A stretch of 35,394 bases of DNA from Bacilli bacterium (GCA_024695405.1 JAILIF010000040.1:1-35394), one strand, 5' to 3'; shown: positions 4,437 through 34,761, numbered from the stretch's first letter. Notes: a model not told the origin generated them from the sequence alone. Numbers and translations are program-made.

Positions 4437-5811
4437 ATCGTTAACAGATAAATTATCACTTATATTTAAAAAGCTTCGTGGAAAGGCTAAAATCACTGAA
4501 TCTAACATTGAAGAGATGCTAAAAGAAATTAGAATCGCTTTATTAGAAGCAGATGTTAATTTCAAAGTAGTTAAATCTTTCTTAGAAAATGTTAAACAAA
4601 AAGCAATTGGGCAAGATGTCTTAGGAAAAATTGATCCTAGCCAACTTATTGTTAAGATTGTTCACGATGAAATTATCGACCTTTTAGGCGGAAATGATTG
4701 TGAACTTAATATCAAGAGAAAACCTTCAATAATCATGTTTGTTGGTCTTCAAGGTACAGGTAAAACTACAACCGCTGCAAAACTTGCTTATCATTTAAAA
4801 AATAAATTAAAGAAGAAAGTTCTTTTAGTTGCAGGTGACGTTTACCGTCCAGCTGCAATTGACCAATTGGGTCAACTTGCTAAATCAATTGGTGTTGAAA
4901 TGTTTACAATGGGAACTAATGTTTCACCAGTAGAAATTTCTTTAAAAGCGCAACAAAAAGCAATTGATGAAAACTACGATGTTATGATTATCGATACTGC
5001 CGGTCGTTTAAGTATTGATGAACAGTTAATGGAAGAGTTAACTCTTATAAAAAAAGCAGTAAATCCTGATGAAGTATTATTCTTAGTAGACGCTGCTTCT
5101 GGTCAAGATACATATAACACTGCAAATATATTCAACGAAAAAGTAGGCTTAACTGGCTACATCATGTCTAAGTTTGATGGTGATGCTCGTGGTGGTTCCG
5201 CTTTATCTATTAGATATTTAACTCACTTACCAATTAAATTTGTTGGTGTTGGTGAAAAAGTAGCTGATTTAGATGTTTTCCATCCAGATAGAATGGCGGA
5301 TAGAATTCTTGGAATGGGTGATGTTGTTACTTTAGTTGAAAAAGCTCAAGAACAAATCGATGAAAAAGAAGCTAAGAAAACAATGAATAAAATGATGAAT
5401 GGTACATTCAATTTGGATGATATGCTTCATCAAATGAAACAAGTAACTAAACTTGGCTCTCTCGGCGGTTTGCTTAGATTAATTCCTGGTATGCCAAAAA
5501 TTACTCCAGAACAACAGGAATATGCCGAAAAAGAAATGAGAAGTTTTGAGATAGTTATTAACTCAATGACTAAGGAAGAAAGACAGCATCCAGAAATATT
5601 AAAATTCTCAAGAAAACAAAGAATTTGTTTAGGTAGCGGAAGAACAATGCAAGACATTAATAAAGTTTTGAAAAAATATGAACAATCAAAACAAATGATG
5701 GAACAAATGGCAAAAATGAAAAAGAATGGTGGAGGATTCCCTGGAGGCGGTTTTCCAGGTGGAGGATTCCCTGGAGCTGGCGGATTCCCTGGTGGATTCC
5801 CAGGAAGATAG
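4426..5811 (+). CDS. ffh: Signal recognition particle protein Ffh
   Basis: GLQGTGKTTTAAKLA, DTAGRL, SKFDGDARGG; M domain; GGFPGGGFPG-rich tail. Confidence 0.96.
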   Translation: MAFESLTDKLSLIFKKLRGKAKITESNIEEMLKEIRIALLEADVNFKVVKSFLENVKQKAIGQDVLGKIDPSQLIVKIVHDEIIDLLGGNDCELNIKRKPSIIMFVGLQGTGKTTTAAKLAYHLKNKLKKKVLLVAGDVYRPAAIDQLGQLAKSIGVEMFTMGTNVSPVEISLKAQQKAIDENYDVMIIDTAGRLSIDEQLMEELTLIKKAVNPDEVLFLVDAASGQDTYNTANIFNEKVGLTGYIMSKFDGDARGGSALSIRYLTHLPIKFVGVGEKVADLDVFHPDRMADRILGMGDVVTLVEKAQEQIDEKEAKKTMNKMMNGTFNLDDMLHQMKQVTKLGSLGGLLRLIPGMPKITPEQQEYAEKEMRSFEIVINSMTKEERQHPEILKFSRKQRICLGSGRTMQDINKVLKKYEQSKQMMEQMAKMKKNGGGFPGGGFPGGGFPGAGGFPGGFPGR

Positions 5812-5840
5812 AAAAAATCGACTTTTGAGTCGATTTTATT
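5812..5840. terminator. Bidirectional terminator between convergent ffh and trmD
   Basis: AAAATCGACT-TTTG-AGTCGATTTT hairpin with A tract on one side and T tract on the other. Confidence 0.75.
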
Positions 5841-6624
5841 TTATAAATTTTTTACCTTTTTCGATTGCTTTAGTTTCCCAATCGCCAATTGTGTTATCGT
5901 CAATTTCTTTGATGAGTTTTTTGTCTTGCTTTGATAACTCAAGCTTTTCAAATAAATCAGGACGTTTTTCTCTTGTAATCCTTAAAGATTCTTTCCTACG
6001 CCATTTTTTAATTGCTTCATGATTTCCGGAATATAAAATGTCTGGAATTTTGTCTCCATTATAATCATATGGTTCAGTGAATTGAGGATATTCTAGACAA
6101 CCATCTTCAAACGATTCTTCTTCTGTGCTCTCATTAGCAATAGCACCGTCTAGTAATCTAACTATTGAATCAACAACTACCATTGCACCAACTTCGCCAC
6201 CAGTAAGAATATAATCACCAATAGATATTGATTCATCAATATATTCTTTTACTCTTTCGTCTATACCTTCATAATGACCACATAATAATACTAAGTTTTC
6301 GATTTCGTCTTTTAATTTATGAGCCATTTTTTGATTATAAGTTTCTCCTCTAGGAGAAAGCATATAAACTTTTGAATTTGGTGGAGTGTTATCTTTAATT
6401 GCATCAATTATTGGCTGACACTTCATGATAAGACCTGCGCCTCCGCCAACAGGAGCGCTATCAACGCGTCCATATTTATCAGTGGTGTAGTCTCTAATAT
6501 TACCCAATTTTATCTCGACTACTCCTGAAGCGATTGCTCTTTTAATAATGGAATTTTCTAATATTCCAGTAAACATTTCTGGGAATAATGTAAGGATTGT
6601 TATTCTCATAACATTCCCTCCCAT
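5836..6624 (-). CDS. trmD: tRNA (guanine37-N1)-methyltransferase TrmD
   Basis: MRITILTLFPEMF, LSPRGETYNQ, LLCGHYEGIDERV, SIGDYILTGGE. Confidence 0.95.
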   Translation of the reverse strand: MGGNVMRITILTLFPEMFTGILENSIIKRAIASGVVEIKLGNIRDYTTDKYGRVDSAPVGGGAGLIMKCQPIIDAIKDNTPPNSKVYMLSPRGETYNQKMAHKLKDEIENLVLLCGHYEGIDERVKEYIDESISIGDYILTGGEVGAMVVVDSIVRLLDGAIANESTEEESFEDGCLEYPQFTEPYDYNGDKIPDILYSGNHEAIKKWRRKESLRITREKRPDLFEKLELSKQDKKLIKEIDDNTIGDWETKAIEKGKKFIK

Positions 6625-7109
6625 AAGACTACATCAATTTCTTGGTTTTCTAATGAAACATTCTTTATAAATTCTTTAATAAACGGAATGAAGAATTCAT
6701 TTCCTTCGTTTGATTTTACTCTAAGAGTAATTTGTGCAGGGAATTCTTCTACTTTTATTACTTTTCCAATTACTTTTCCATTTGAGATAACATTACATTT
6801 CTCTAAATCTGAAAAGTAATAATAGCCATTTTCTAAGTCGTTAGTTTTATTAATTAATAAACTATAAGATTTATATGAATCAGCTTCTTCTTTGGTTAAT
6901 ATTTCATCAAATTTAACAAAGTCAATTTCTCCAGCATTTCTAAAAGAAGAAACAGTAAGTTCCTTTATAATATTCTCGTTTTTGTCTGCAAGATATACTT
7001 TGTTTCCTTTTACGTATCTTTTACTAGACATATTTGTTTTAGAAAGAACTTTAATAGTTCCATCTAATGAGAATGATGAGATGATGTAACCAAGTAATAA
7101 CTTTTCCAT
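6606..7109 (-). CDS. rimM: Ribosome maturation factor RimM
   Basis: LLLGYIISSFSLDGTIKV N-terminus, PRC-barrel C-terminus; adjacent to trmD. Confidence 0.85.
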   Translation of the reverse strand: MEKLLLGYIISSFSLDGTIKVLSKTNMSSKRYVKGNKVYLADKNENIIKELTVSSFRNAGEIDFVKFDEILTKEEADSYKSYSLLINKTNDLENGYYYFSDLEKCNVISNGKVIGKVIKVEEFPAQITLRVKSNEGNEFFIPFIKEFIKNVSLENQEIDVVLWEGML

Positions 7110-7128
7110 AATATTTTAAAAAAGAGGA

Positions 7129-7395
7129 CTAGTCCTCTTTAATTTCTTCATCAAATGATTCGAATTTGACGTGAACGTGAATATTTTCGCTTTTTCCTGC
7201 AACGGAGATGATTTCTCTAATTGAGTTAGCAATGATTCCGCGTCTACCGATTAAGCGAGCAGTATCATCTTTTTCTGCAGCGATAAGAATGCTTAAGTCT
7301 TTATCGCTTTCTTCGTTGAGTCTAATAAGGACTGAGTCAGGTTCTTCAATAATTGGATCGATTAATGAATGAATAATTTTCTCGTAGTCCATCAT
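7129..7395 (-). CDS. khpA: KH domain RNA-binding protein (KhpA/YlqC type)
   Basis: KH core IGRRGIIANSIREII; located between rpsP and rimM. Confidence 0.85.
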   Translation of the reverse strand: MMDYEKIIHSLIDPIIEEPDSVLIRLNEESDKDLSILIAAEKDDTARLIGRRGIIANSIREIISVAGKSENIHVHVKFESFDEEIKED

Positions 7396-7401
7396 TAGGT
7401 C

Positions 7402-7677
7402 CTACTTTCCAGCTTTTTTAGCTTCAACTAATTTAGCATTAAGACCTTTACGATTGAACATTGCTTTAACAGTGTCAGATGGTGTAGCACCAGCTAATAA
7501 CCATTTTAAAGCTAAAGTTTCATCGATAACTGCATTTTCAACGCCCTTTTCTGGGTCGAAATAACCAATTTGTTCAATGTAACGGCCATCACGAGCGAAA
7601 CGTGAATCAGCTGCTACGATACGGAAAAATGGATCTTTATGACGACCGATTCTTGTTAATCTAATTTTAACTGCCAT
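7402..7677 (-). CDS. rpsP: 30S ribosomal protein S16
   Basis: MAVKIRLTRIGRHKDPFFRIVAADSR...RDGRYIEQIGYFDP. Confidence 0.96.
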   Translation of the reverse strand: MAVKIRLTRIGRHKDPFFRIVAADSRFARDGRYIEQIGYFDPEKGVENAVIDETLALKWLLAGATPSDTVKAMFNRKGLNAKLVEAKKAGK

Positions 7678-7773
7678 AATAATATCCTCCTTATGTGCTG
7701 AAATATCATATATTTATTATTAATAGGTGTCAAGCATTTTTACTTAACATTCATACAAAACTCAATATTTTTG

Positions 7774-7802
7774 TTGAAATGGTTTAATTAAATAGGTATA
7801 TT
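7774..7802 (+). promoter_or_regulatory. Promoter for rplS
   Basis: TTGAAA - 17 bp - TATATT. Confidence 0.7.
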
Positions 7803-7804
7803 AT

Positions 7805-7888
7805 TTAAGCATGCTTAAGCATGATACGGGTGCTCCGCTGTCTAATATAGAGAATGAACATCAAGAGACAATATATCAAGGAGGCGTT
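7805..7888 (+). ncRNA. Candidate L19-type ribosomal protein leader upstream of rplS
   Basis: About 80-nt untranslated leader between promoter and rplS start; TCCGCTG and GAACATCAAG segments recall the Firmicutes L19 leader; also contains palindrome TTAAGCATGCTTAA. Confidence 0.5.
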
Positions 7889-7894
7889 GAAAGT

Positions 7895-8242
7895 ATGAAT
7901 AACAATTTAGTTAATGAAATTACTGCTAGCCAAATCCGCAAAGACTTACCAGAATTCAAATCTGGTGACGAAGTTAAAGTATCTGTCCGTATTGTTGAAG
8001 GTAACAAAACTCGTTTACAAGTCTTCCAAGGCGTCGTTATTTGCCGTCGCGGTGGTGGTGTTAGTGAAACGTTTACAGTTCGTAAGATGAGTGCTGGTAT
8101 TGGTGTTGAAAGAACATTCCCAGTAAACAGCCCAAACGTTGCATCTGTTATAGTTGTACGTAAAGGTAAAGTTAGAAGAAACAAAATTACTTACATTCGT
8201 AAACTTTCTGGTAAATCAGCAAGAATTAAAGAAATTCTCTAA
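7895..8242 (+). CDS. rplS: 50S ribosomal protein L19
   Basis: 115 aa; [41 protein letters not shown]; start set at 7895 because SD AAGGAGG lies at 7878-7884 (ORF track start at 7811 is inside the leader). Confidence 0.95.
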
Positions 8243-14603: not shown

Positions 14604-14722
14604 ACGCTGTGAAAATATCACAGACTACACACGCTGCGGATTGAACTGCCGTTGTGCTCCTAAAGATTGGAGTGGTCGAGTTCTTAGAAACAGCGGAGGC
14701 TGAACAAAAGGAGGTCTTCACA
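14604..14722 (+). promoter_or_regulatory. Structured 5' leader of rpsB (candidate r-protein autoregulatory leader)
   Basis: Hairpins CTGTGA-AAATA-TCACAG (14607-14623), CACA..CGG/CCG..TGTG (14628-14656), CTCC/GGAG (14657-14672), no T tract. Confidence 0.45.
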
Positions 14723-15805
14723 ATGGTTGAAGAAGAAAAGAAAGTAGCAGAAGCAGCAACAGCTGTTGATGCAAAAGATGCAGCAACTATGGCTGCAGTT
14801 ATGCATGACGAAAATGCTCCAGTTATCACAATGAAGAAATTGTTAGAAGCTGGTTCACACTTTGGTCATCAAACACGTAGATGGAACCCAAAGATGAAAA
14901 AGTACATCTACTGTGCAAGAAATGGTGTTTATATCATTGACTTAGCACAAACAGTTGCTTTCGTAAATGATGCTTACAAAGCAATGAAAGCTATCGTTGA
15001 TAACGGTGGTAAAGTATTATTCGTTGGTACAAAACAACAAATCGCTGAAGTTGTTACTCAAGAAGCATTAAGAAGTGGTAGCTTCTACATCACTAACAGA
15101 TGGTTAGGTGGTACATTAACAAACTTCAAAACAATCCAAGGTAGAATTAGATACCTCAAAGATTTAGAGAGAAGAGAAGAAGAAGGCGAATTCGAATTAT
15201 TACCAAAAGTCGAAGCTGCTCAACTCCGTAAAGAAAAAGAAAAATTATCAAAGAACTTAGAAGGTATTAAGGAAATGAGAAAAATTCCTAATGCACTCTT
15301 CGTTGTTGATCCAAATGCAGAACACAATGCTGTTGCTGAAGCAAAGAGATTAGGAATCCCAGTCTTCGGTATCGTTGATACAAACAGCAATCCTGATTTA
15401 TGTGACTATGTCATCCCAGCAAACGATGATGCAGTCAGAAGTGTTTCCTTAATTTTAGCTGTCATCGCTGACGCTATCGTTGAATCTAAGGGTGGTGCAC
15501 CAGTAGTTGCTTACACTAAAGATGAAGGCGATGAAGTTACTATGAAGGAAGTCATTAAACAAACTGAAAAAGAAAACGCTGAAAAATTAGCAAAGATTCG
15601 TGCAGAAAGAGCTGCTCGTCAAGAAGCTTTTGAAAAAGAACAAGCTGAAAGAGCTGCAAAAAGAGCTGCAATGTTAGCTGCTGATGGTAACGGCGACAAG
15701 AAACCTGCTAAAGCACCTGCAAAGAAACCAGCTGCTAAAAAAGAAGTTGCTCCTAAAGCAGAAGAAGCTAAAGCAGAACCAGCAAAAGAAGGAGAATCCA
15801 AATAA
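14723..15805 (+). CDS. rpsB: 30S ribosomal protein S2 with N- and C-terminal extensions
   Basis: [27 protein letters not shown]...; SD AAGGAGG before ATG 14723; Ala/Lys/Glu/Pro-rich tail. Confidence 0.96.
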
Positions 15806-16677
15806 TGGCTGATAGTTTAATTGACTTAATTAAAGTATTAAGAGATAGAACTGGTGCAGGCTTAATGGACTGCAAAGGCGCTTTATTAGCAAACGATTGC
15901 GATTTAGATAAAGCGGGTGACTACCTCCGTGAAAAGGGCTTAGCAAAAGCTGCTAAAAAAGCAGATAGAATTGCTGCTGAAGGTTTAGTAGTTGTTAAAA
16001 CTTGTGAAGGCTGTGGCAAAACAGTTATCGTTGAAGTTAACTGTGAAACAGACTTCGTTTCTAAAGGTGATGCTTTCAAAGAATTAGTTGAAAACGTTGC
16101 TTCAGTTATTTTAAAGAACAAACCAGCTGACGTTGCTGCTGCAAAAGAATTAACAAAAGATTTATTCACAGACGCAACTGTTAAGATGGGTGAAAAATTC
16201 GATTTACGTAGATTCCAAATCATCGAAAAAGGTGACAACGCTGTTTATACATACATTCACATGGGTGGCAAAATCGGTGTTGTTGCAGTTTTAGATAAGG
16301 AAGATGCTGAAACTGGTAAAGGTTTAGCAATGCACATTGCTGCTAATAACCCAACATATGCTTCAAAAGCTGACATCGGTGAAGATGCAATTGCACACGA
16401 AACTGAAATTCAAACAAGAGCTGCTAAAGAAGATCCAAAATTTGCTGGTAAGCCAGAAGCTATGATTCAAAAAATCATCGGCGGTAAAGTTGATAAATAC
16501 TTCTCCGAAATGGTTCTCACTGAACAAGCTTACTTATTAGATGATTCTAAGAAAGTCGGCGCTGTCTTAGCAGAAAAGAAATTAAATGTTGTCAAATACG
16601 TTCGTTACCAAGTTGGTGAAGGTATTGAAAAACGTCAAGATGATTTCGCTAGCGAAGTCATGGCACAAGCTAAGTAA
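15805..16677 (+). CDS. tsf: Elongation factor Ts
   Basis: LIKVLRDRTGAGLMDCKGALLANDCDLDKA, VEVNCETDFVSK, HIAANNP. Confidence 0.97.
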   Translation: MADSLIDLIKVLRDRTGAGLMDCKGALLANDCDLDKAGDYLREKGLAKAAKKADRIAAEGLVVVKTCEGCGKTVIVEVNCETDFVSKGDAFKELVENVASVILKNKPADVAAAKELTKDLFTDATVKMGEKFDLRRFQIIEKGDNAVYTYIHMGGKIGVVAVLDKEDAETGKGLAMHIAANNPTYASKADIGEDAIAHETEIQTRAAKEDPKFAGKPEAMIQKIIGGKVDKYFSEMVLTEQAYLLDDSKKVGAVLAEKKLNVVKYVRYQVGEGIEKRQDDFASEVMAQAK

Positions 16678-26847: not shown

Positions 26848-26924
26848 CGGGAAGTAGCACAGCTTGATAGTGCGCTCGCTTCGGGAGCGAGAGGTCGCGA
26901 GTTTGAATCTCGTCTTCCCGACCA
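26848..26924 (+). tRNA. tRNA-Pro (anticodon CGG), CCA encoded
   Basis: CGGGAAG acceptor pairs with CTTCCCG; anticodon arm CTCGC-TTCGGGA-GCGAG; T arm GCGAG-TTTGAAT-CTCGT; ACCA end. Confidence 0.95.
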
Positions 26925-26926
26925 AA

Positions 26927-27907
26927 TTATTTAAAAATCCACATAAATTTCTCAACATTGATTCTATATGGATAAACATAGAAACCATTTGCGTTTTCTA
27001 GAGATAAATAAGAAGCGTATTCATCCTCAAACCAATCTTGAGTCATCTGAGAATAGTATGCTCTATAGACATTTCTGTATTCAATTATGTAGCCATCTTT
27101 ATTGATGATTGTTTTCCTTGCGGAGTTGTTTGGTTGTCTTATCTCAATTCCTTCTAAACTATATGGAATCTCAGCGTTTAAATATAGTGTATAGTGGTCT
27201 GAAAACACTTCAGAATCATCTTTCATTGATTCGATTATTGTGCTTATTCGATATTCTTTGTTATTACAAAATATTGATGCATTATGCATTCCTAATAATT
27301 TTAAAAAATTGTTACCGGATTTATTGTCAAATTTATCACTAGAATAAATAGACACTGATTTAATATATTCTAAGAAAGAATAAAAAATATCTAGAGCATC
27401 ATCGGATAAATAGTGGATTCCATCCTTTGTATAGCCAACTGTTCCATCGTAATAAATATCAGCTCTTCCAAGAGAAGCGTTTTCTACTTGGAAAGCACCG
27501 TGGCTATTATTAACTTCATCAATATGGAAATTTGTTTGTTGAATAAAGGTGTTAAAATAATCTTCGAATGTTTTAGACGATTTGCAATTATATAGGTTCT
27601 GTAATTCGCCATTAAAATATGTAAATGAATTTTCAATATTTGCATTTTCGTCTGGTGATTTTAAGTTTGTAACTTCTCTTTTTATATCTTTATTATCTAT
27701 TTCTTCGTGTCCAAAAAATAAATAAGATTTTAAAGTAATTTCTTTGTTAGTGATTGTTGTATCATATATTTCTTTTAATCCAGAATAGTAAACAAAATCT
27801 TCTTCTACTTGAGGAGTAACTGTATCGTTTCCGGGCATTTTGCCATCGTCCGAACACGAAACTAATAAAAAACATATTGAAAGAAATTTTACAGCTTTAT
27901 TTTTCAT
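26927..27907 (-). CDS. Lipoprotein of unknown function (cassette 1, gene B)
   Basis: 326 aa; lipobox FLLVSC; SD GAGGAGG; overlaps upstream gene by ATGA; paralog of 29095..30090. Confidence 0.8.
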   Translation of the reverse strand: MKNKAVKFLSICFLLVSCSDDGKMPGNDTVTPQVEEDFVYYSGLKEIYDTTITNKEITLKSYLFFGHEEIDNKDIKREVTNLKSPDENANIENSFTYFNGELQNLYNCKSSKTFEDYFNTFIQQTNFHIDEVNNSHGAFQVENASLGRADIYYDGTVGYTKDGIHYLSDDALDIFYSFLEYIKSVSIYSSDKFDNKSGNNFLKLLGMHNASIFCNNKEYRISTIIESMKDDSEVFSDHYTLYLNAEIPYSLEGIEIRQPNNSARKTIINKDGYIIEYRNVYRAYYSQMTQDWFEDEYASYLSLENANGFYVYPYRINVEKFMWIFK

Positions 27908-28743
27908 AGCGAAGGATCCTCCTCTTCATATAGGATAATTCCTGTATCGTATAAGCAATCTAAACAAACAAGATGCCCATTCGAGTCTCCAAATCTATGA
28001 GGCTCATTTTCTGAGATGGTTGTGCAACAAATCGAATGTTTGTTATGAACATAGCTGTTCACCGATGTATATCCGTAATAGTGCATTAATCTATAAACAG
28101 AGAAAGTTGTTTCAGGAACTATATCATTACCTGGAAGAATTGTTTGCTCTTGATAATATGGACATTCTAAGGCGTAATGCTCATATACTCCATGTTCACA
28201 CCATTTTGATCTAACCAATGTACCGGAAAAACTTGTAGATGGAGCGATAACATAGGCTGAATGAGAATTTCCATCCATATTCATTGCTCCTCCGTAATCA
28301 GTGTTTTCGTAAACAATAATATCACCTGTTAAAAGAGGGGAGATAAAAGGAAACGAAGAAGGAAAAACTGAGCCATATATTACCGTATAGTAACAAAAAG
28401 TTCCAAGATAGTCAGGATCTTGCAAAAACTGCCCTTCATTATTAATAATGCAATTTGTATAATTGTTTATATTGTTTAGATTACCTCTATAGCGCCATGC
28501 AAAAGAATGGCAATTATACTTGAAAGATGGTTCAGCGACTTTTATAGCATTTGGAAATCTACTTATATCAAGAAAATCAGTTGGAGTTTCGTTCCCTATA
28601 TATATAAAAGAAGAAATATTTTTACCTGTGTAGGAAATAAAAGAATCATCCTGGTATTTGGTATAATCTACACTAAAAGAACGGCCATTTATATTCCGAG
28701 TACTTAATGAAAAACATATAATTAAAAATAATTCTTGTACCAT
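27904..28743 (-). CDS. Putative secreted papain/NlpC-P60-like protein with C-terminal Cys/His cluster (cassette 1, gene A)
   Basis: 279 aa; short hydrophobic N-terminus, YNCHSFAWRY, GDIIVY, HSAYV, VRSKW..G.YEH, ICC..H..GHLVCLDC; paralog of 30087..30920. Confidence 0.7.
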   Translation of the reverse strand: MVQELFLIICFSLSTRNINGRSFSVDYTKYQDDSFISYTGKNISSFIYIGNETPTDFLDISRFPNAIKVAEPSFKYNCHSFAWRYRGNLNNINNYTNCIINNEGQFLQDPDYLGTFCYYTVIYGSVFPSSFPFISPLLTGDIIVYENTDYGGAMNMDGNSHSAYVIAPSTSFSGTLVRSKWCEHGVYEHYALECPYYQEQTILPGNDIVPETTFSVYRLMHYYGYTSVNSYVHNKHSICCTTISENEPHRFGDSNGHLVCLDCLYDTGIILYEEEDPSL

Positions 28744-29027
28744 ACTTTACTTTAAAACTTATTTTATTTTTAATCAATATTTTTATAAACTGTCATCTAT
28801 TTATATATACGTGGATATTTTGAATTAACTAGCAAATTTGAATTTACTAAACTGTATACGTTCAGCAACACAATCAATAGCAATTTTGTAAAAGCATATT
28901 AAAACCTTTGCTTTTGAGACTTTTTACTTATATATTTCTCAGAAAATATGCATTTTTTGCATTTTTTACAGATAGCGTTTCATAAAGGTAGGTCTTAGTG
29001 CTACCTGTTATTCTATCCAAATTATCT

Positions 29028-29092
29028 CAGCTTGATAGCGCACTCGCTTCGGGAGCGAGAGGTTGCGAGTTTGAATCTCGTCTTCCCGACCA
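29028..29092 (+). pseudogene. Truncated tRNA-Pro: 3' 65 nt of a tRNA-Pro(CGG), lacking the 5' acceptor strand
   Basis: 62/65 identical to 26860-26924 by eye; sequence 5' of CAGCTTGATAG does not pair with CTTCCCG. Confidence 0.9.
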
Positions 29093-29094
29093 AA

Positions 29095-30090
29095 TTATTT
29101 ATAAATCCAAATCAATTTATCAATATTTATTTTAAATGGATAGACAACAAAAATATGTGCGTTCTTTAAAATAAATGTTCCTGCATATTGATCTTGATCC
29201 TTGAAATAACTCTGTAGCATTTCGGAATGATAAGACATAAATTCATCCCTATATTCAATAATATATCCATCTTTGTTGATAATCGTTTTTGAATTTTCAA
29301 CTTCGCCATTTTTAATTTTAATACCTTCTAAACTATATGGAATAGGAGCATTCATATATAAGGTTAAAGTATCTGAAAACAATTCAACATTATCAAGAAA
29401 TAATTCATATATTTTTTGCATTTCAAATCCTTTATTGTTACACGTTAATAATGCATTGCGACTTTTTAACTTATAAAAAAAGTCTATTCCATCCTTAAGA
29501 GTGAATTTGTATTCTATGTTAGTAGTCAATATCATAATGTATTCTAAGTATAAATTAAATGTATCCAATTTTTCGTTTGATACATAGCGGATGTCGTTAT
29601 TTGTATATCCGACTTTTCCATCGTAATATACATCTATAACGCCAAGTGTTTGATTATAAATACTAAGTATGCCTAAATCATTATTTATTTCATCTACAAT
29701 AAAGTTTGCGCTTTCAAAGAAACTATTAAGATAGTCATCAAATTCTTTAGAAAATTTGTAAATATGAGGAGTTCCACTAGTTGTTCTATAAATATAAAAT
29801 AATGAGTTATCAATATTAGTGCTTTCGTTTGGAAATCTGAGATTTTCAATTTCTCTTTTGGTTTCTTTAAAATCTACCTCTTCCCAACCGTGATATTGAA
29901 TAGATTGCAATGTTATCTCTTTATTCTTTATTGAGGTATCATAGATTTCTTTTAATTCTGTGTAGTATTCAAAAGCTTCTTCAATTTGAGGATTATCTAC
30001 TTGGCTATTGCTTGCTTCGTTGTTACTGTTACTAGAACATGAAATTAATAAAAATGATAGTAAAAAAAGATTAAACGGCTTTGCTTTCAT
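29095..30090 (-). CDS. Lipoprotein of unknown function (cassette 2, gene B)
   Basis: 331 aa; lipobox FLLISC; SD GGAGG; ATGA overlap with upstream gene; paralog of 26927..27907. Confidence 0.8.
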   Translation of the reverse strand: MKAKPFNLFLLSFLLISCSSNSNNEASNSQVDNPQIEEAFEYYTELKEIYDTSIKNKEITLQSIQYHGWEEVDFKETKREIENLRFPNESTNIDNSLFYIYRTTSGTPHIYKFSKEFDDYLNSFFESANFIVDEINNDLGILSIYNQTLGVIDVYYDGKVGYTNNDIRYVSNEKLDTFNLYLEYIMILTTNIEYKFTLKDGIDFFYKLKSRNALLTCNNKGFEMQKIYELFLDNVELFSDTLTLYMNAPIPYSLEGIKIKNGEVENSKTIINKDGYIIEYRDEFMSYHSEMLQSYFKDQDQYAGTFILKNAHIFVVYPFKINIDKLIWIYK

Positions 30091-30920
30091 AGTGAAGGAT
30101 CCTCCGTGTTATATAAAATGATTCCTGTATCATATAAACAGTCTAAGCAAATGAGATGGCCGTTAGAATCTCCAAATCTATGGGCTTCATTTTCAGAGAC
30201 AGTGGTGCAACAAATTGAATGCTTATTATGAAGATAAGGATTTATATAACTATATCCATAATAATGCATTAATCTAAAAACAGAAATTTGTCTTTCGGGA
30301 TATATGGTATTTCCATAAATTATTTGAGGGTTATAATATGGACAATCTAAAGCGTTGTGTTCATATGTGCCATATTTACCCCATTTAGATCTAACTACTA
30401 TGCTTGCAAAACTTGTTGACGGAGTAATTACATAAGCTGAGTGAGCATTGCCTTCCTCAATAAAATCTCCGATGATATCGTTTTTTATATAAACTATAAT
30501 GTCCCCTTGTAAAATAGGGAAATAAAAAGGAAAAGAGGAAGGATAAATTTCATCATATATATGCTCATAATAACAAAAAGTACCGCTATATTCAGGATTG
30601 CCTAAAAATTGAGTTTCATCATCAATGACGCAGTTTGTAGTAGAGTCAATATTGTTTAAGTTTCCTTTGTATCGCCATGCAAATGAATGGCAGTTGTAAT
30701 TAAAAGATGGATTACCAACTTTAGTAGCACTTAAATAATTGCTTGCGGATGGGTAATCTACTGGGGTATCATTCCCAATATATCTTTTACAATTAATATC
30801 TCTGCCTGTATCTGAAACGAAATTGTAACTCTCATAGTCAGAGTCCAATCTTAAAATTAGCCCTCTATCTGTTTGAGAACTCAAAGATATAAACAAAACG
30901 GAAATTAATTCAGTTACCAT
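30087..30920 (-). CDS. Putative secreted papain/NlpC-P60-like protein with C-terminal Cys/His cluster (cassette 2, gene A)
   Basis: 277 aa; YNCHSFAWRY, GDIIVY, HSAYV, VRSKWG..G.YEH, HSICCTT..HRFGDSNGHLICLDC; paralog of 27904..28743. Confidence 0.7.
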   Translation of the reverse strand: MVTELISVLFISLSSQTDRGLILRLDSDYESYNFVSDTGRDINCKRYIGNDTPVDYPSASNYLSATKVGNPSFNYNCHSFAWRYKGNLNNIDSTTNCVIDDETQFLGNPEYSGTFCYYEHIYDEIYPSSFPFYFPILQGDIIVYIKNDIIGDFIEEGNAHSAYVITPSTSFASIVVRSKWGKYGTYEHNALDCPYYNPQIIYGNTIYPERQISVFRLMHYYGYSYINPYLHNKHSICCTTVSENEAHRFGDSNGHLICLDCLYDTGIILYNTEDPSL

Positions 30921-31074
30921 AGCTAATTATATAATTTATGTTTTAGTAAAAAAAATAATTTTATGCTCTAATTGTTTTGAATTTAGTCTTAAAAATATTA
31001 TATATTTTTATCAAAAAATTAATTTTTTTGTTTTATTATGGTGCATTTTCTAGTAATTTATAAATAATAAAATC

Positions 31075-32421
31075 ATGAAGTATTTTTATCTAGGGACAAT
31101 TGCTATAGTGACATTGATGATGTTAGGAATGACATTTCACGTTTTAGCATACTCTGGATTTACAAAAAAACAAAAGAAATGGTTTACTTGGACATTCTTA
31201 TCTATAGTATTCTGCTGCTTTGCAGAATTTGCTGTTCACTGTGGATATTATGATCCTGATTTAAAAATTCCTTTATATATTTTAACTGTATTGCAATTCT
31301 CATTATCTCCTATTCTTGCAATGCTTTTTTGTGGTGCTCTTGGCTTAAGAGGCCAAAAAGTTGTAGCAATAGTGTTCTTTACTATGGGAATAATCGCTGA
31401 AACAGTATGTGCTTTTAAAGGATGGATATTTTCTTTCGATGAAATTGGATATCATAGAGGAACATATTTTTATATTTATGAAATCTTTTTCTCGGTATCA
31501 TTTGCTTACTTGCTTGTATGCTTATTTGTTGTAGGTAGAAGATTTAGATCTAGAGATTTAGTTACTATTGCATGCATTTTTGTTATTATCGCTGCTGGTA
31601 TAGCTCTTACAATGTTCTCTAAGGAATTATTTAATGAAGAAATTCATGTTACGTATATCGCGATTGGATTGTGTGCTTGTCTATCTTATATTTACTATAA
31701 CGATTTAGTCCAAGAAGATGTCAAAACTGAATTAGTAGATAAACAAGAAAAGATGTCTAGAATGCAAAACCATATTATTACAGCGTTGGCCAGTTTGATT
31801 GAAAGTAGAGACGCTAATACTGGTGAGCATGTTATTAGAACAAGTTATTTTGCTAAGAATCTTGCAGAAGAAATTAAAGGCATGAAGAGTTATTCTAAAG
31901 AAGTATCAGATGAATTTGTTCAACTTATATATTTATTAGCACCTTTACATGATGTTGGTAAAATTGTAGTTTCAGATCAAATATTAACTAAACCCGCTAG
32001 ATTAACTCCTGAAGAATTTGAAGAAATGAAAAAACACGCTTCTATGGGTGGTGTTGTTATTAAGCAAATCTTAGAAGGTGTTGCTGATGATGATTATCTC
32101 AAGTTTGCTAGTGACATCGCAATGTATCATCATGAAAGATGGGATGGAACAGGGTATCCAACTGGATTAAAAGGTAAAAAGATTCCTTTAGCAGCTAGAA
32201 TTATGGCTATTGCGGATGTATTTGATGCTTTAACTTCAGAACGTTGCTATAAACCTAAAATGGAACCTGAGAAAGCTTTCCAAATTATTGAGGAAGAAGC
32301 AGGAACACATTTTGATCCTCAATTAGTTAAAGTGTTTCTTAAGAATAAAGAACTATACGTCAATTATTTAAATGGACAAGAAACAATAGAACAAAAAAAT
32401 GAAGAGGTCGCTCAAAGCTAA
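31075..32421 (+). CDS. Membrane HD-GYP domain protein (putative c-di-GMP/cyclic dinucleotide phosphodiesterase)
   Basis: N-terminal multi-TM region; HDVGKI and HHERWDGTGYPTGLKG with ADVFDALTSERCYK. Confidence 0.88.
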   Translation: MKYFYLGTIAIVTLMMLGMTFHVLAYSGFTKKQKKWFTWTFLSIVFCCFAEFAVHCGYYDPDLKIPLYILTVLQFSLSPILAMLFCGALGLRGQKVVAIVFFTMGIIAETVCAFKGWIFSFDEIGYHRGTYFYIYEIFFSVSFAYLLVCLFVVGRRFRSRDLVTIACIFVIIAAGIALTMFSKELFNEEIHVTYIAIGLCACLSYIYYNDLVQEDVKTELVDKQEKMSRMQNHIITALASLIESRDANTGEHVIRTSYFAKNLAEEIKGMKSYSKEVSDEFVQLIYLLAPLHDVGKIVVSDQILTKPARLTPEEFEEMKKHASMGGVVIKQILEGVADDDYLKFASDIAMYHHERWDGTGYPTGLKGKKIPLAARIMAIADVFDALTSERCYKPKMEPEKAFQIIEEEAGTHFDPQLVKVFLKNKELYVNYLNGQETIEQKNEEVAQS

Positions 32422-32439
32422 GCGCCTCTTCGTTTTTGT
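32401..32439. terminator. Bidirectional terminator between convergent HD-GYP gene and clpB
   Basis: GAAGAGG-T-CGC ... GCG-CCTCTTC with T tract downstream and A7 upstream; overlaps the HD-GYP stop codon. Confidence 0.75.
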
Positions 32440-32441
32440 TT

Positions 32442-34559
32442 TTACATCTGTTTAATTACAATCTTGTCGTTAATGTAATCAACTAGATATTTATGTTTTG
32501 TATCTATATGCTCACTAATGATTTCAGTAGCAAGAAGTGTTTCCACTTCGTTTTGAATAAATCTTTTAATAGGTCTAGCACCAAAAGTTTCAGAATAAGA
32601 GCTATCTAAGATATATTGTTTAAGAGCGTTAGAGAATTCAACTGAATAGTAAGATTCTTTTAGTCTTCTATTAAGTAAATTTAACATCTTATCAACAATC
32701 TTTAATTGAACTTCTTTTCCTAATGGATTGAAGTAGACTATTTCATCAATACGATTTAAGAATTCCGGTTTAAATGTTTGATGTAATAACATTTCTACAT
32801 TTTCTTTATGGCCTTCCAATATATCACTTGATCCTAAATTAGAAGTCATAATGATAATGGTGTTCTTAAAATCAATTATTCTTCCTTGAGAGTCTGTTAG
32901 TCTACCATCATCGAGTATTTGAAGTAATAGATTAAATACTTCAGGATGAGCTTTTTCTATTTCGTCAAATAAGACAATTGAATATGGGTTTCTTCTTACT
33001 TTTTCAGTTAATTGTCCACCTTCTTCGTAACCAACATATCCTGGAGGAGCACCAATTAATCTAGAAGTAGAATATTTCTCCATATATTCAGACATATCGA
33101 TTCTAATGATATGAGATTCACTATCAAATAAAGCTTCTGCTAAAGATTTTGCTACTTCTGTTTTACCTACTCCAGTTGGACCAAGGAATAAGAACGAACC
33201 AATTGGCCTATTTGCATCCTTAATACCTGCTCTTTGACGTAAAATAGCGTTACTAACAAGAGAAAGAGCTTCATCTTGTCCGATAACTCGTTTCTCTAAA
33301 GTTTTCTTTAAATCTAAGACTTTTTGCTTATCACCTTTTTGAATACGTGATAGTGGAATATTAGTTTGTTTAGAAATAATTTTTGCGATTTCTTCTTCAT
33401 CGACTACTTCACTAATTAAAGATTCACCATTAGAATTTTTAACTTCTAGTGATTCAAGCTTTTTCTCCAAAGCAGGAATAATCTTATATTTTAATTCACC
33501 TGCTTTTTCATATTCACCTTGGCTATAAGCAAACTCTAGATCTCTAGTTGCTTTTTCTTTTTCTTCTTTAACTTTCTTTGCTTCAACAATTTTTTCTTTT
33601 TCTTGTTTCCACTCAGCAGTTAGTTTTTCCTCTTCTGATTTCTTTTTAGATAATTCATCTTCTAAGACAGCAAGACGCTTTTTACTAGAATCATCGCTTT
33701 CTTTAGAAAGAGCTGCTTTTTCTATTTCTAATTGTCTTATATTTCTTTCTAATTCATCTAATTCAGTAGGCATTGATTCAATTTCTACTTTTATAGATGC
33801 GCATGCTTCATCTACTAAGTCGATTGCTTTATCAGGAAGAAATCTACTTGTTAGATATCTATTAGATAAAGTAGCCGCGGCTATTAAAGCATTATCAGAA
33901 ATCTTAACTCCATGGAAAGTCTCAAATCTATTTTTAAGACCTCTTAATATAGATATAGTATCTTCTACAGTAGGTTCTCCTACTAAGACAGGTTGAAAAC
34001 GTCTTTCTAGTGCTCTATCTTTTTCAATATATTGTCTATATTCATTTAAAGTAGTGGCGCCAATACAGTCAATTTCCCCTCTAGCAAGCATAGGCTTAAG
34101 CATATTAGATGCATCCATTGCGCCATCTGTTCTACCTGCACCAACAATTAAATGAATTTCATCAATAAATAAAATAATCTTTCCGTCAGATTCTTTAATC
34201 TTATTTAAGACTGCTTTAAGTCTTTCCTCAAATTCACCACGATATTTAGCGCCTGCAATAAGCGCACCCATATCTAGTTCATATATAGTCTTATCTTTTA
34301 AAGTTAAAGGGACATCATCTTTAACTATTCTTTCTGCTAAACCTTCAAGAATAGCGGTTTTACCAACTCCTGGTTCACCAATAAGAATGACATTATTCTT
34401 ACTTTTACGAGCAAGTATTTGAATAATTTTTCTTATTTCTTCATCTCTTCCTATTACAGGATCTACTTTTCCTTTCTTGACTTCTTCGTTAATGTTACGT
34501 CCAAACTTTTGAAGGACGTTTTCATCATTTTCATAATTAGGTTCTTGGTTAATATTCAT
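32442..34559 (-). CDS. clpB: ClpB-type AAA+ disaggregase lacking the N-terminal domain
   Basis: 705 aa; two Walker A sites ([22 protein letters not shown]), coiled-coil M domain; starts at [24 protein letters not shown]. Confidence 0.9.
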
Positions 34560-34583
34560 AATCTTGTCCTCCTATTCAATTTC

Positions 34584-34611
34584 ATTATAGTACAAAATTA
34601 GCACTCTGCAA
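34584..34611 (-). promoter_or_regulatory. clpB promoter
   Basis: Minus strand TTGCAG - 16 bp - TATAAT; -35 lies inside CIRCE. Confidence 0.7.
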
Positions 34612-34624
34612 GTGAGAGTGCTAA
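34598..34624. promoter_or_regulatory. CIRCE element (HrcA operator)
   Basis: TTAGCACTC-N9-GAGTGCTAA, perfect inverted repeat. Confidence 0.96.
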
Positions 34625-34761
34625 AAATTTTATTTAATTTATTTATAAATTACATTTCTCAAATTCTTATTTTATTGGTGGCAAACCACTCATTTTTCAA
34701 AAAGAAAAGCCATATAAAGACTATTATGATAGAATATAAAATGCTTTTAATAGGAATAGAT

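What the first reader, a model, noticed from the sequence alone, without database searches (positions are those of the whole stretch)
26848..30920. Two-gene secreted-protein/lipoprotein cassette present twice in tandem, each copy flush against tRNA-Pro sequence
Seen directly: [tRNA-Pro(CGG)]-[geneB]-[geneA] is followed by [65-nt tRNA-Pro 3' fragment]-[geneB']-[geneA'], all with the same polarity. In both copies the lipoprotein stop codon lies 2 nt past the tRNA CCA, inside the identical junction CCCGACCAAATTATTT. An intact tRNA at one end plus a displaced 3' tRNA fragment is the classic footprint of site-specific integration into a tRNA gene (genomic islands, satellites, tycheposons). Here the unit is only about 2.1 kb and carries no integrase. 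Inference: a minimal tRNA-anchored cargo cassette, mobilised in trans or by homologous recombination, accreting in order at a dispensable tRNA-Pro.
Basis: partly seen in the sequence, partly recalled or inferred. Interest (0 to 1): 0.85.

Follow-up and report, generated by a model that had tools for sequence, protein, structure and literature searches.

The report
Surface-gene pair stacked at a tRNA
In an uncultured bacterium, two well-diverged versions of a secreted-enzyme and lipoprotein gene pair sit side by side behind one proline tRNA gene, with a recently displaced piece of that tRNA between them, a small example of the known habit of bacterial genomes to stack accessory genes at tRNA genes.

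Summary
tRNA-Pro(CGG) 26848-26924 is followed by lipoprotein B and secreted protein A (both minus strand). Next come a 65-nt tRNA 3' fragment (29028-29092, 62/65 identical) and B'-A'. Both B stop codons lie 2 nt past CCA.

Comparative data show a flexible spot. The polC-tRNA-Pro junction is ancient (19 of 20 relatives examined). The nearest congener is collinear with the window up to exactly 2 nt past the tRNA, then carries unrelated surface genes. Another congener lacks this tRNA.

A/A' and B/B' are as diverged as orthologues of different species (dS 1.3 and 1.9; 4-fold sites 44-48% identical), yet the useless tRNA fragment is 95% identical. The fragment was therefore displaced recently. Copying followed by divergence in place, with the fragment already dead, is very unlikely.

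I favour additive recombination at the tRNA that joined two already diverged tRNA-B-A segments. A rival is an old tandem whose second tRNA was truncated recently.

No dedicated integrase was found (XerC/D type only), and no phage, plasmid or viral relative. A/B homologues elsewhere are not tRNA-linked, so "minimal mobile cassette" is not supported. The closest known kind is the additive flexible genomic island with tRNA 3' repeats.

The parts
26848..26924 (+). intact tRNA-Pro(CGG), 8 nt after the polC stop codon; conserved polC-tRNA-Pro junction of the family
   Evidence: ARAGORN, Rfam; synteny
26927..27907 (-). gene B: predicted lipoprotein, 326 aa, no family above cut-off; stop codon 2 nt from the tRNA CCA
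27904..28743 (-). gene A: predicted secreted protein, 279 aa, motif YNCHSFAW...HS...SKW, probably CHAP/papain-like cysteine hydrolase; ATGA overlap with B
28744..29027 (.). spacer upstream of A, ending abruptly at the tRNA fragment; no detectable similarity to the spacer after A' or to G001
29028..29092 (+). displaced tRNA-Pro 3' fragment (positions 13-77), 62/65 identical to the intact tRNA
29095..30090 (-). gene B': lipoprotein, 331 aa, 47% aa identity to B
30087..30920 (-). gene A': secreted protein, 277 aa, 61% aa identity to A
26925..34720 (.). whole variable interval against the nearest congener (tRNA-Pro end to just before tRNA-Leu): B, A, B', A', HD-domain protein (63% aa in G001), Clp/ClpB-type ATPase (absent at this place in G001)

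Best explanation
The interval behind polC-tRNA-Pro(CGG) is a small flexible genomic island that uses the tRNA 3' end as its fixed edge. Two already diverged versions of one accessory operon (secreted CHAP/papain-like protein A, then lipoprotein B), each adjoining a tRNA-Pro 3' end, were brought together there. A recombination event at the tRNA gene added tRNA-B-A in front of a resident tRNA-B'-A', probably with DNA from a related species. It left an intact tRNA at the edge and the resident tRNA's 3' 65 nt as a displaced scar. Shown: the anatomy, the exact synteny edge, the mismatch in age between fragment and genes, and the absence of the cassette in the relatives examined. Inferred: the donor, the direction of addition, the function of A and B, and that homologous or illegitimate recombination rather than an integrase did it.
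For: G001 is collinear with the window from 200 to exactly 26926 (tRNA end + 2 nt), carries an unrelated 825-aa surface-type protein and a 155-aa lipoprotein there, and returns to 91% identity at 34721. A/A' dS is 1.30 and B/B' dS 1.87, with 4-fold site identity 0.475 and 0.438, while the fragment is 62/65 identical; P = 1e-16 if it had evolved like those sites. The fragment's acceptor 3' strand, whose partner is lost, and its loops are unchanged. Each of its three differences occurs at the same position in functional tRNA-Pro of relatives (only suggestive, P = 0.075). A/A' divergence (61% aa, dS 1.3) matches that of fast orthologues between G000 and G001 (e.g. 65% aa, dS 1.52), and the tRNA-fragment difference (3/65) resembles the tRNA difference between these species (2/77): both look like a segment from a congeneric species. 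The 3' flank of tRNA-Pro differs between many members of the family. The identical CCA-AA-TTA junction in both copies implies that the tRNA-B adjacency predates the A/A' split.
Against: No strain or species with a single tRNA-B-A unit was found, so neither donor nor intermediate state is seen. No third tRNA fragment lies beyond A'. GC content and codon usage of A/B are close to the host's, so foreign origin is not shown by composition. dS between G000 and G001 varies from 0.05 to 1.5, so it does not date events.
Confidence: 0.48

Rival explanations
1. An old tandem duplication of the whole tRNA-Pro-B-A segment. Both tRNA genes stayed functional while the protein genes diverged; recently the second tRNA lost its first 12 nt and became the fragment.
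For: Also explains the shared stop/CCA junction, the head-to-tail order and the tRNA-like quality of the fragment. Needs no donor. If the duplication is about as old as the G000-G001 split it needs no loss in G001.
Against: Requires long maintenance of a redundant copy of a tRNA that G002 does without. None of the 20 relatives' polC loci shows two tRNA-Pro(CGG) genes. No remnant of the tRNA 5' end or polC end precedes the fragment.
Confidence: 0.3
2. B-A is a minimal non-autonomous mobile cassette whose attachment site is the tRNA-Pro 3' end, integrated site-specifically by an integrase acting in trans.
For: Intact tRNA plus displaced 3' fragment is the textbook footprint. B-A is a presence/absence module in the family (3 of 226 genomes have A). 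A recombinase-like gene lies 3.2 kb behind tRNA-Pro in relative G041.
Against: Only XerC/XerD-type recombinases in the assembly, both with orthologues in congeners. No viral contig carries this att. A is absent from phages, plasmids and viral contigs and B from viral contigs. Other A-B pairs are not at tRNAs. With 2 nt between CCA and the B stop there is no room for integrase arm sites outside the B gene. No fragment lies after A'.
Confidence: 0.12
3. Old duplication with the fragment kept similar by gene conversion from the intact tRNA or by selection, for example as a 3' end or terminator for B'.
For: Identity falls off from the tRNA into the end of B: 95%, 90%, 75%, 45%, as a conversion tract might leave. 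No terminator-like site follows either B gene in the scan.
Against: The antisense strand of the fragment does not fold better than shuffles (z -0.39). Unpaired parts are as conserved as stems. A conversion tract limited to about 65-85 nt is near the lower limit for recombination (general knowledge).
Confidence: 0.07
4. Assembly chimera of two strains joined at the tRNA repeat.
For: The genome is a 108-contig draft; the repeat would be the natural place for a false join.
Against: The longest exact shared run is 37 nt, shorter than usual final k-mers. The fragment's left edge is not at a repeat.
Confidence: 0.03

Closest known systems
Additive flexible genomic islands (fGIs) at tRNA genes, with tRNA 3' direct repeats at the ends of inserted cassettes (Alteromonas PMC4119200; Ca. 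Actinomarinales PMC7771536; Ca. Methylopumilus fGI-2 PMC10872708)
   Same: Conserved tRNA as fixed edge, displaced tRNA 3' repeats (20 nt in Methylopumilus, 52 nt in an Alteromonas island), small accessory cassettes (from 330 bp and 1 CDS in Methylopumilus), variable content between close relatives, and in Actinomarinales no identifiable mobile elements.
   Different: Here the two cassettes are homologous versions of one gene pair sharing the same stop codon/CCA junction. Only one fragment and one genome with the array are known, and strain-level presence/absence could not be shown.
Tycheposons
   Same: tRNA-edged accessory region.
   Different: Tycheposons are 4-200 kb with a tyrosine recombinase gene (PMC10872708); here 4 kb and none within the island.
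tRNA-integrated genomic islands, ICEs, IMEs, prophages
   Same: Intact tRNA on one side, partial 3' copy on the other.
   Different: No integrase, no conjugation or phage genes, no repeat at the far end.
CHAP / NlpC-P60-type secreted cysteine hydrolases with an adjacent lipoprotein
   Same: A family: YNCHSYAW, HS, SKW(G) motifs. 5 of 29 members hit CHAP weakly (best 1.6e-4). 22 of 71 loci have a lipobox protein directly downstream.
   Different: The window's own A proteins hit no Pfam family above cut-off; the fold match to papain-like enzymes is weak.

Membership tests
Additive tRNA-anchored flexible genomic island | conserved tRNA at the edge of the variable region | tested here: met
   polC-tRNA-Pro in 19 of 20 relatives; collinearity with G001 stops at 26926
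Additive tRNA-anchored flexible genomic island | direct repeat of the tRNA 3' part at the end of an inserted cassette | tested here: met
   65-nt fragment after B-A; none after B'-A'
Additive tRNA-anchored flexible genomic island | cassettes present or absent between strains of a species | not testable with these tools
   one genome per species held; at species level absent in G001 and G002
Site-specifically integrated element (island, IME, prophage) in a tRNA | integrase gene in the element or helper with this att | tested here: not met
   only XerC/D-type in an 87% complete genome; att absent from viral contigs
Site-specifically integrated element (island, IME, prophage) in a tRNA | att repeat at both ends of each unit | tested here: not met
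   B-A has both; B'-A' lacks the distal one
Tycheposon | tyrosine recombinase and large cargo beside the tRNA | tested here: not met
CHAP / papain-like cysteine hydrolase (protein A) | catalytic Cys-His motif and fold | tested here: inconclusive
   invariant C78, H161 and SKW in 29 proteins; weak CHAP hits; model pLDDT 78, best PDB hit papain-like but E > 0.2

The most novel reading that the evidence does not exclude
A 2.1-kb integrase-free two-gene cassette whose mobility unit is defined by a host tRNA-Pro 3' end fused to the lipoprotein's stop codon, moved between congeneric species by recombination at the tRNA and stacked there in order.
Probability: 0.12. Interest if true: 0.65.

Novelty: new member of a known kind. 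Interest (0 to 1): 0.42.

Why it matters
It is a compact case of gene accretion at a tRNA without a visible integrase in uncultured small-genome Bacilli. The decay-clock argument, comparing a dead tRNA fragment with synonymous sites of the flanking paralogues, separates 'copied here and diverged' from 'diverged elsewhere, then joined' and could be applied widely. The cargo, a secreted CHAP-like protein with a lipoprotein, is a recurrent, uncharacterised Firmicutes surface module.

Tried and rejected
Copy-and-diverge in place with a dead fragment: rejected by the fragment's 95% identity against 44-48% at 4-fold sites. Fragment as a structured antisense terminator: fold not better than shuffles. 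tRNA-Pro(GGG) link of the G147 A-B pair: the genes between are collinear with its congener G148, in which no A was found, and B-A follows them, so that tRNA is coincidental. My first dating, using polC 3'-end dS 0.31 as the species distance, was withdrawn after dS over the other genes proved to range 0.05-1.5. Spacer comparison as a test of duplication: uninformative (p 0.32). Fold of B: no usable model (pLDDT 41). Searches of phages, plasmids and viral contigs: nothing. Class-wide search for a closer relative: none.

Full report
1. What is there. The window belongs to G000, an 87% complete assembly of 108 contigs. Two members of the same family carry NCBI labels as Erysipelotrichaceae MAGs: contigs of 20757 and 55881 bases match G147 and G133. 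tRNA-Pro(CGG) starts 8 nt after the polC stop. On the minus strand, reading toward the tRNA, come A (secreted) and B (lipoprotein), overlapping at ATGA; the B stop codon is 2 nt from the CCA. A 284-nt spacer follows A, then positions 13-77 of a tRNA-Pro (62/65 identical), then B' and A' in the same arrangement with the identical junction. A covariance-model search of the whole assembly finds 36 full tRNAs and only this one fragment.

2. The gene pair. Homologues of A occur widely in Firmicutes: 78 distinct loci were returned by the scan, a few of them from other phyla. All 29 aligned proteins keep YNC, H161 and SKW. Five of 29 hit the CHAP model weakly. The AlphaFold model's top PDB neighbours include several papain-like enzymes, but none is significant. 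In 22 of 71 loci checked, a protein with a lipobox follows directly, so A-B is a recurring secreted-enzyme plus lipoprotein module. Only one of these 71 loci has a tRNA within 1 kb. A third A-B pair in the same genome (contig C63) has no tRNA nearby, although the contig ends 523 bases past B. The pair in G147 begins where collinearity with its congener G148 ends; no A was found in G148. That place is upstream of a glycosyltransferase gene, not at a tRNA. The module is therefore accessory and its location varies, but it is not tRNA-bound in general.

3. The site. polC followed by tRNA-Pro(CGG) is found in 19 of 20 relatives examined, the exception being congener G002. By eye, most of those tRNAs are followed by a hairpin with a T run, a terminator-like sequence that the window lacks. 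The window and G001 align at 86% from 200 to 26926, which is the tRNA end plus 2 nt. Alignment resumes in the HD-domain gene at only 70% and returns to 91% at 34721, just before tRNA-Leu. G001 has an 825-aa surface-type protein and a small lipoprotein at the spot. In G002 no tRNA-Pro(CGG) 3' end was found at up to 3 mismatches (that assembly is 91% complete). Content behind the tRNA differs between many relatives. The tRNA 3' end is thus the fixed edge of a flexible region. Part of this difference may be replacement of the whole tRNA-Pro to tRNA-Leu interval: HD gene dS is 1.44, and the Clp ATPase is absent at this place in G001.

4. Ages. A/A' have dS 1.30 and B/B' dS 1.87, with 4-fold site identity of 0.475 and 0.438. 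Had the fragment been free to drift for that time, 62/65 identity would have P of about 1e-16, and still 3e-7 at a neutral identity of 0.7. The unpaired acceptor strand and both remaining hairpin loops are intact. The antisense fold is not special, so a terminator role does not explain it. The three differences are all states found in functional tRNA-Pro of relatives (weak by itself, P 0.075). The fragment was most likely part of a working tRNA until recently. Because both copies share the junction, the tRNA-B adjacency is older than the A/A' split. Two histories remain. In the first, two diverged tRNA-B-A segments, differing about as much as fast orthologues of G000 and G001, were joined recently by additive recombination at the tRNA. 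In the second, an old tandem kept two working tRNAs until one was truncated. I prefer the first, because a redundant copy of a dispensable tRNA is unlikely to be maintained and no relative shows two. No intermediate has been seen, however.

5. Integrase question. The assembly has only two tyrosine recombinases, both of XerC/XerD size and with counterparts in G001 and G002; one is in the window next to topA. The tRNA 3' end is absent from the viral contig collection, and no relative of A was found in the phage, plasmid or viral collections. B'-A' has no distal fragment. A dedicated mobile cassette is thus possible but unsupported. The genome is about 13% incomplete, so a helper could be missing.

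6. Known kind. Additive flexible genomic islands are described with this footprint: tRNA as edge, repeats of its 3' part after cassettes, small cassettes, and sometimes no recognisable mobile elements (PMC4119200, PMC7771536, PMC10872708). This is a member at small scale, with the unusual feature that the stacked cassettes are versions of the same operon.

Noticed in passing
window 31075-32421 and 32442-34559: HD-domain signalling protein is far more diverged from G001 (63% aa, dS 1.44) than most neighbours, and a 705-aa Clp/ClpB-type ATPase lies before the tRNA-Leu-Arg-Leu cluster in the window but not at this place in G001 or G002; the whole tRNA-to-tRNA interval may be a replacement island.
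   Followed up: partly
L044 (G002:C2), after polC: tRNA-Pro(CGG) missing in congener G002; polC is followed within a few nt by a 564-aa HD-domain protein.
   Followed up: partly
L061 (G041:C2:60000-67000), 3.2 kb behind tRNA-Pro: A 522-aa recombinase-like protein and small phage-like genes follow the same tRNA-Pro in a relative: possibly an integrated element at this site.
   Followed up: no
L043 (G001:C56) 5396-7873 -: 825-aa secreted protein with a hydrophobic C-terminal anchor-like end, no Pfam match, directly behind tRNA-Pro in the congener.
   Followed up: no
L042 (G000:C63) 524-2395 -: Third, very diverged A-B pair in the same genome (about 32% aa to A), not beside a tRNA.
   Followed up: partly
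window 7811-8242, 14654-16677: Genes with dS of only 0.05-0.2 to G001 while neighbours reach 1.5: strong codon constraint or recent exchange between the species.
   Followed up: no
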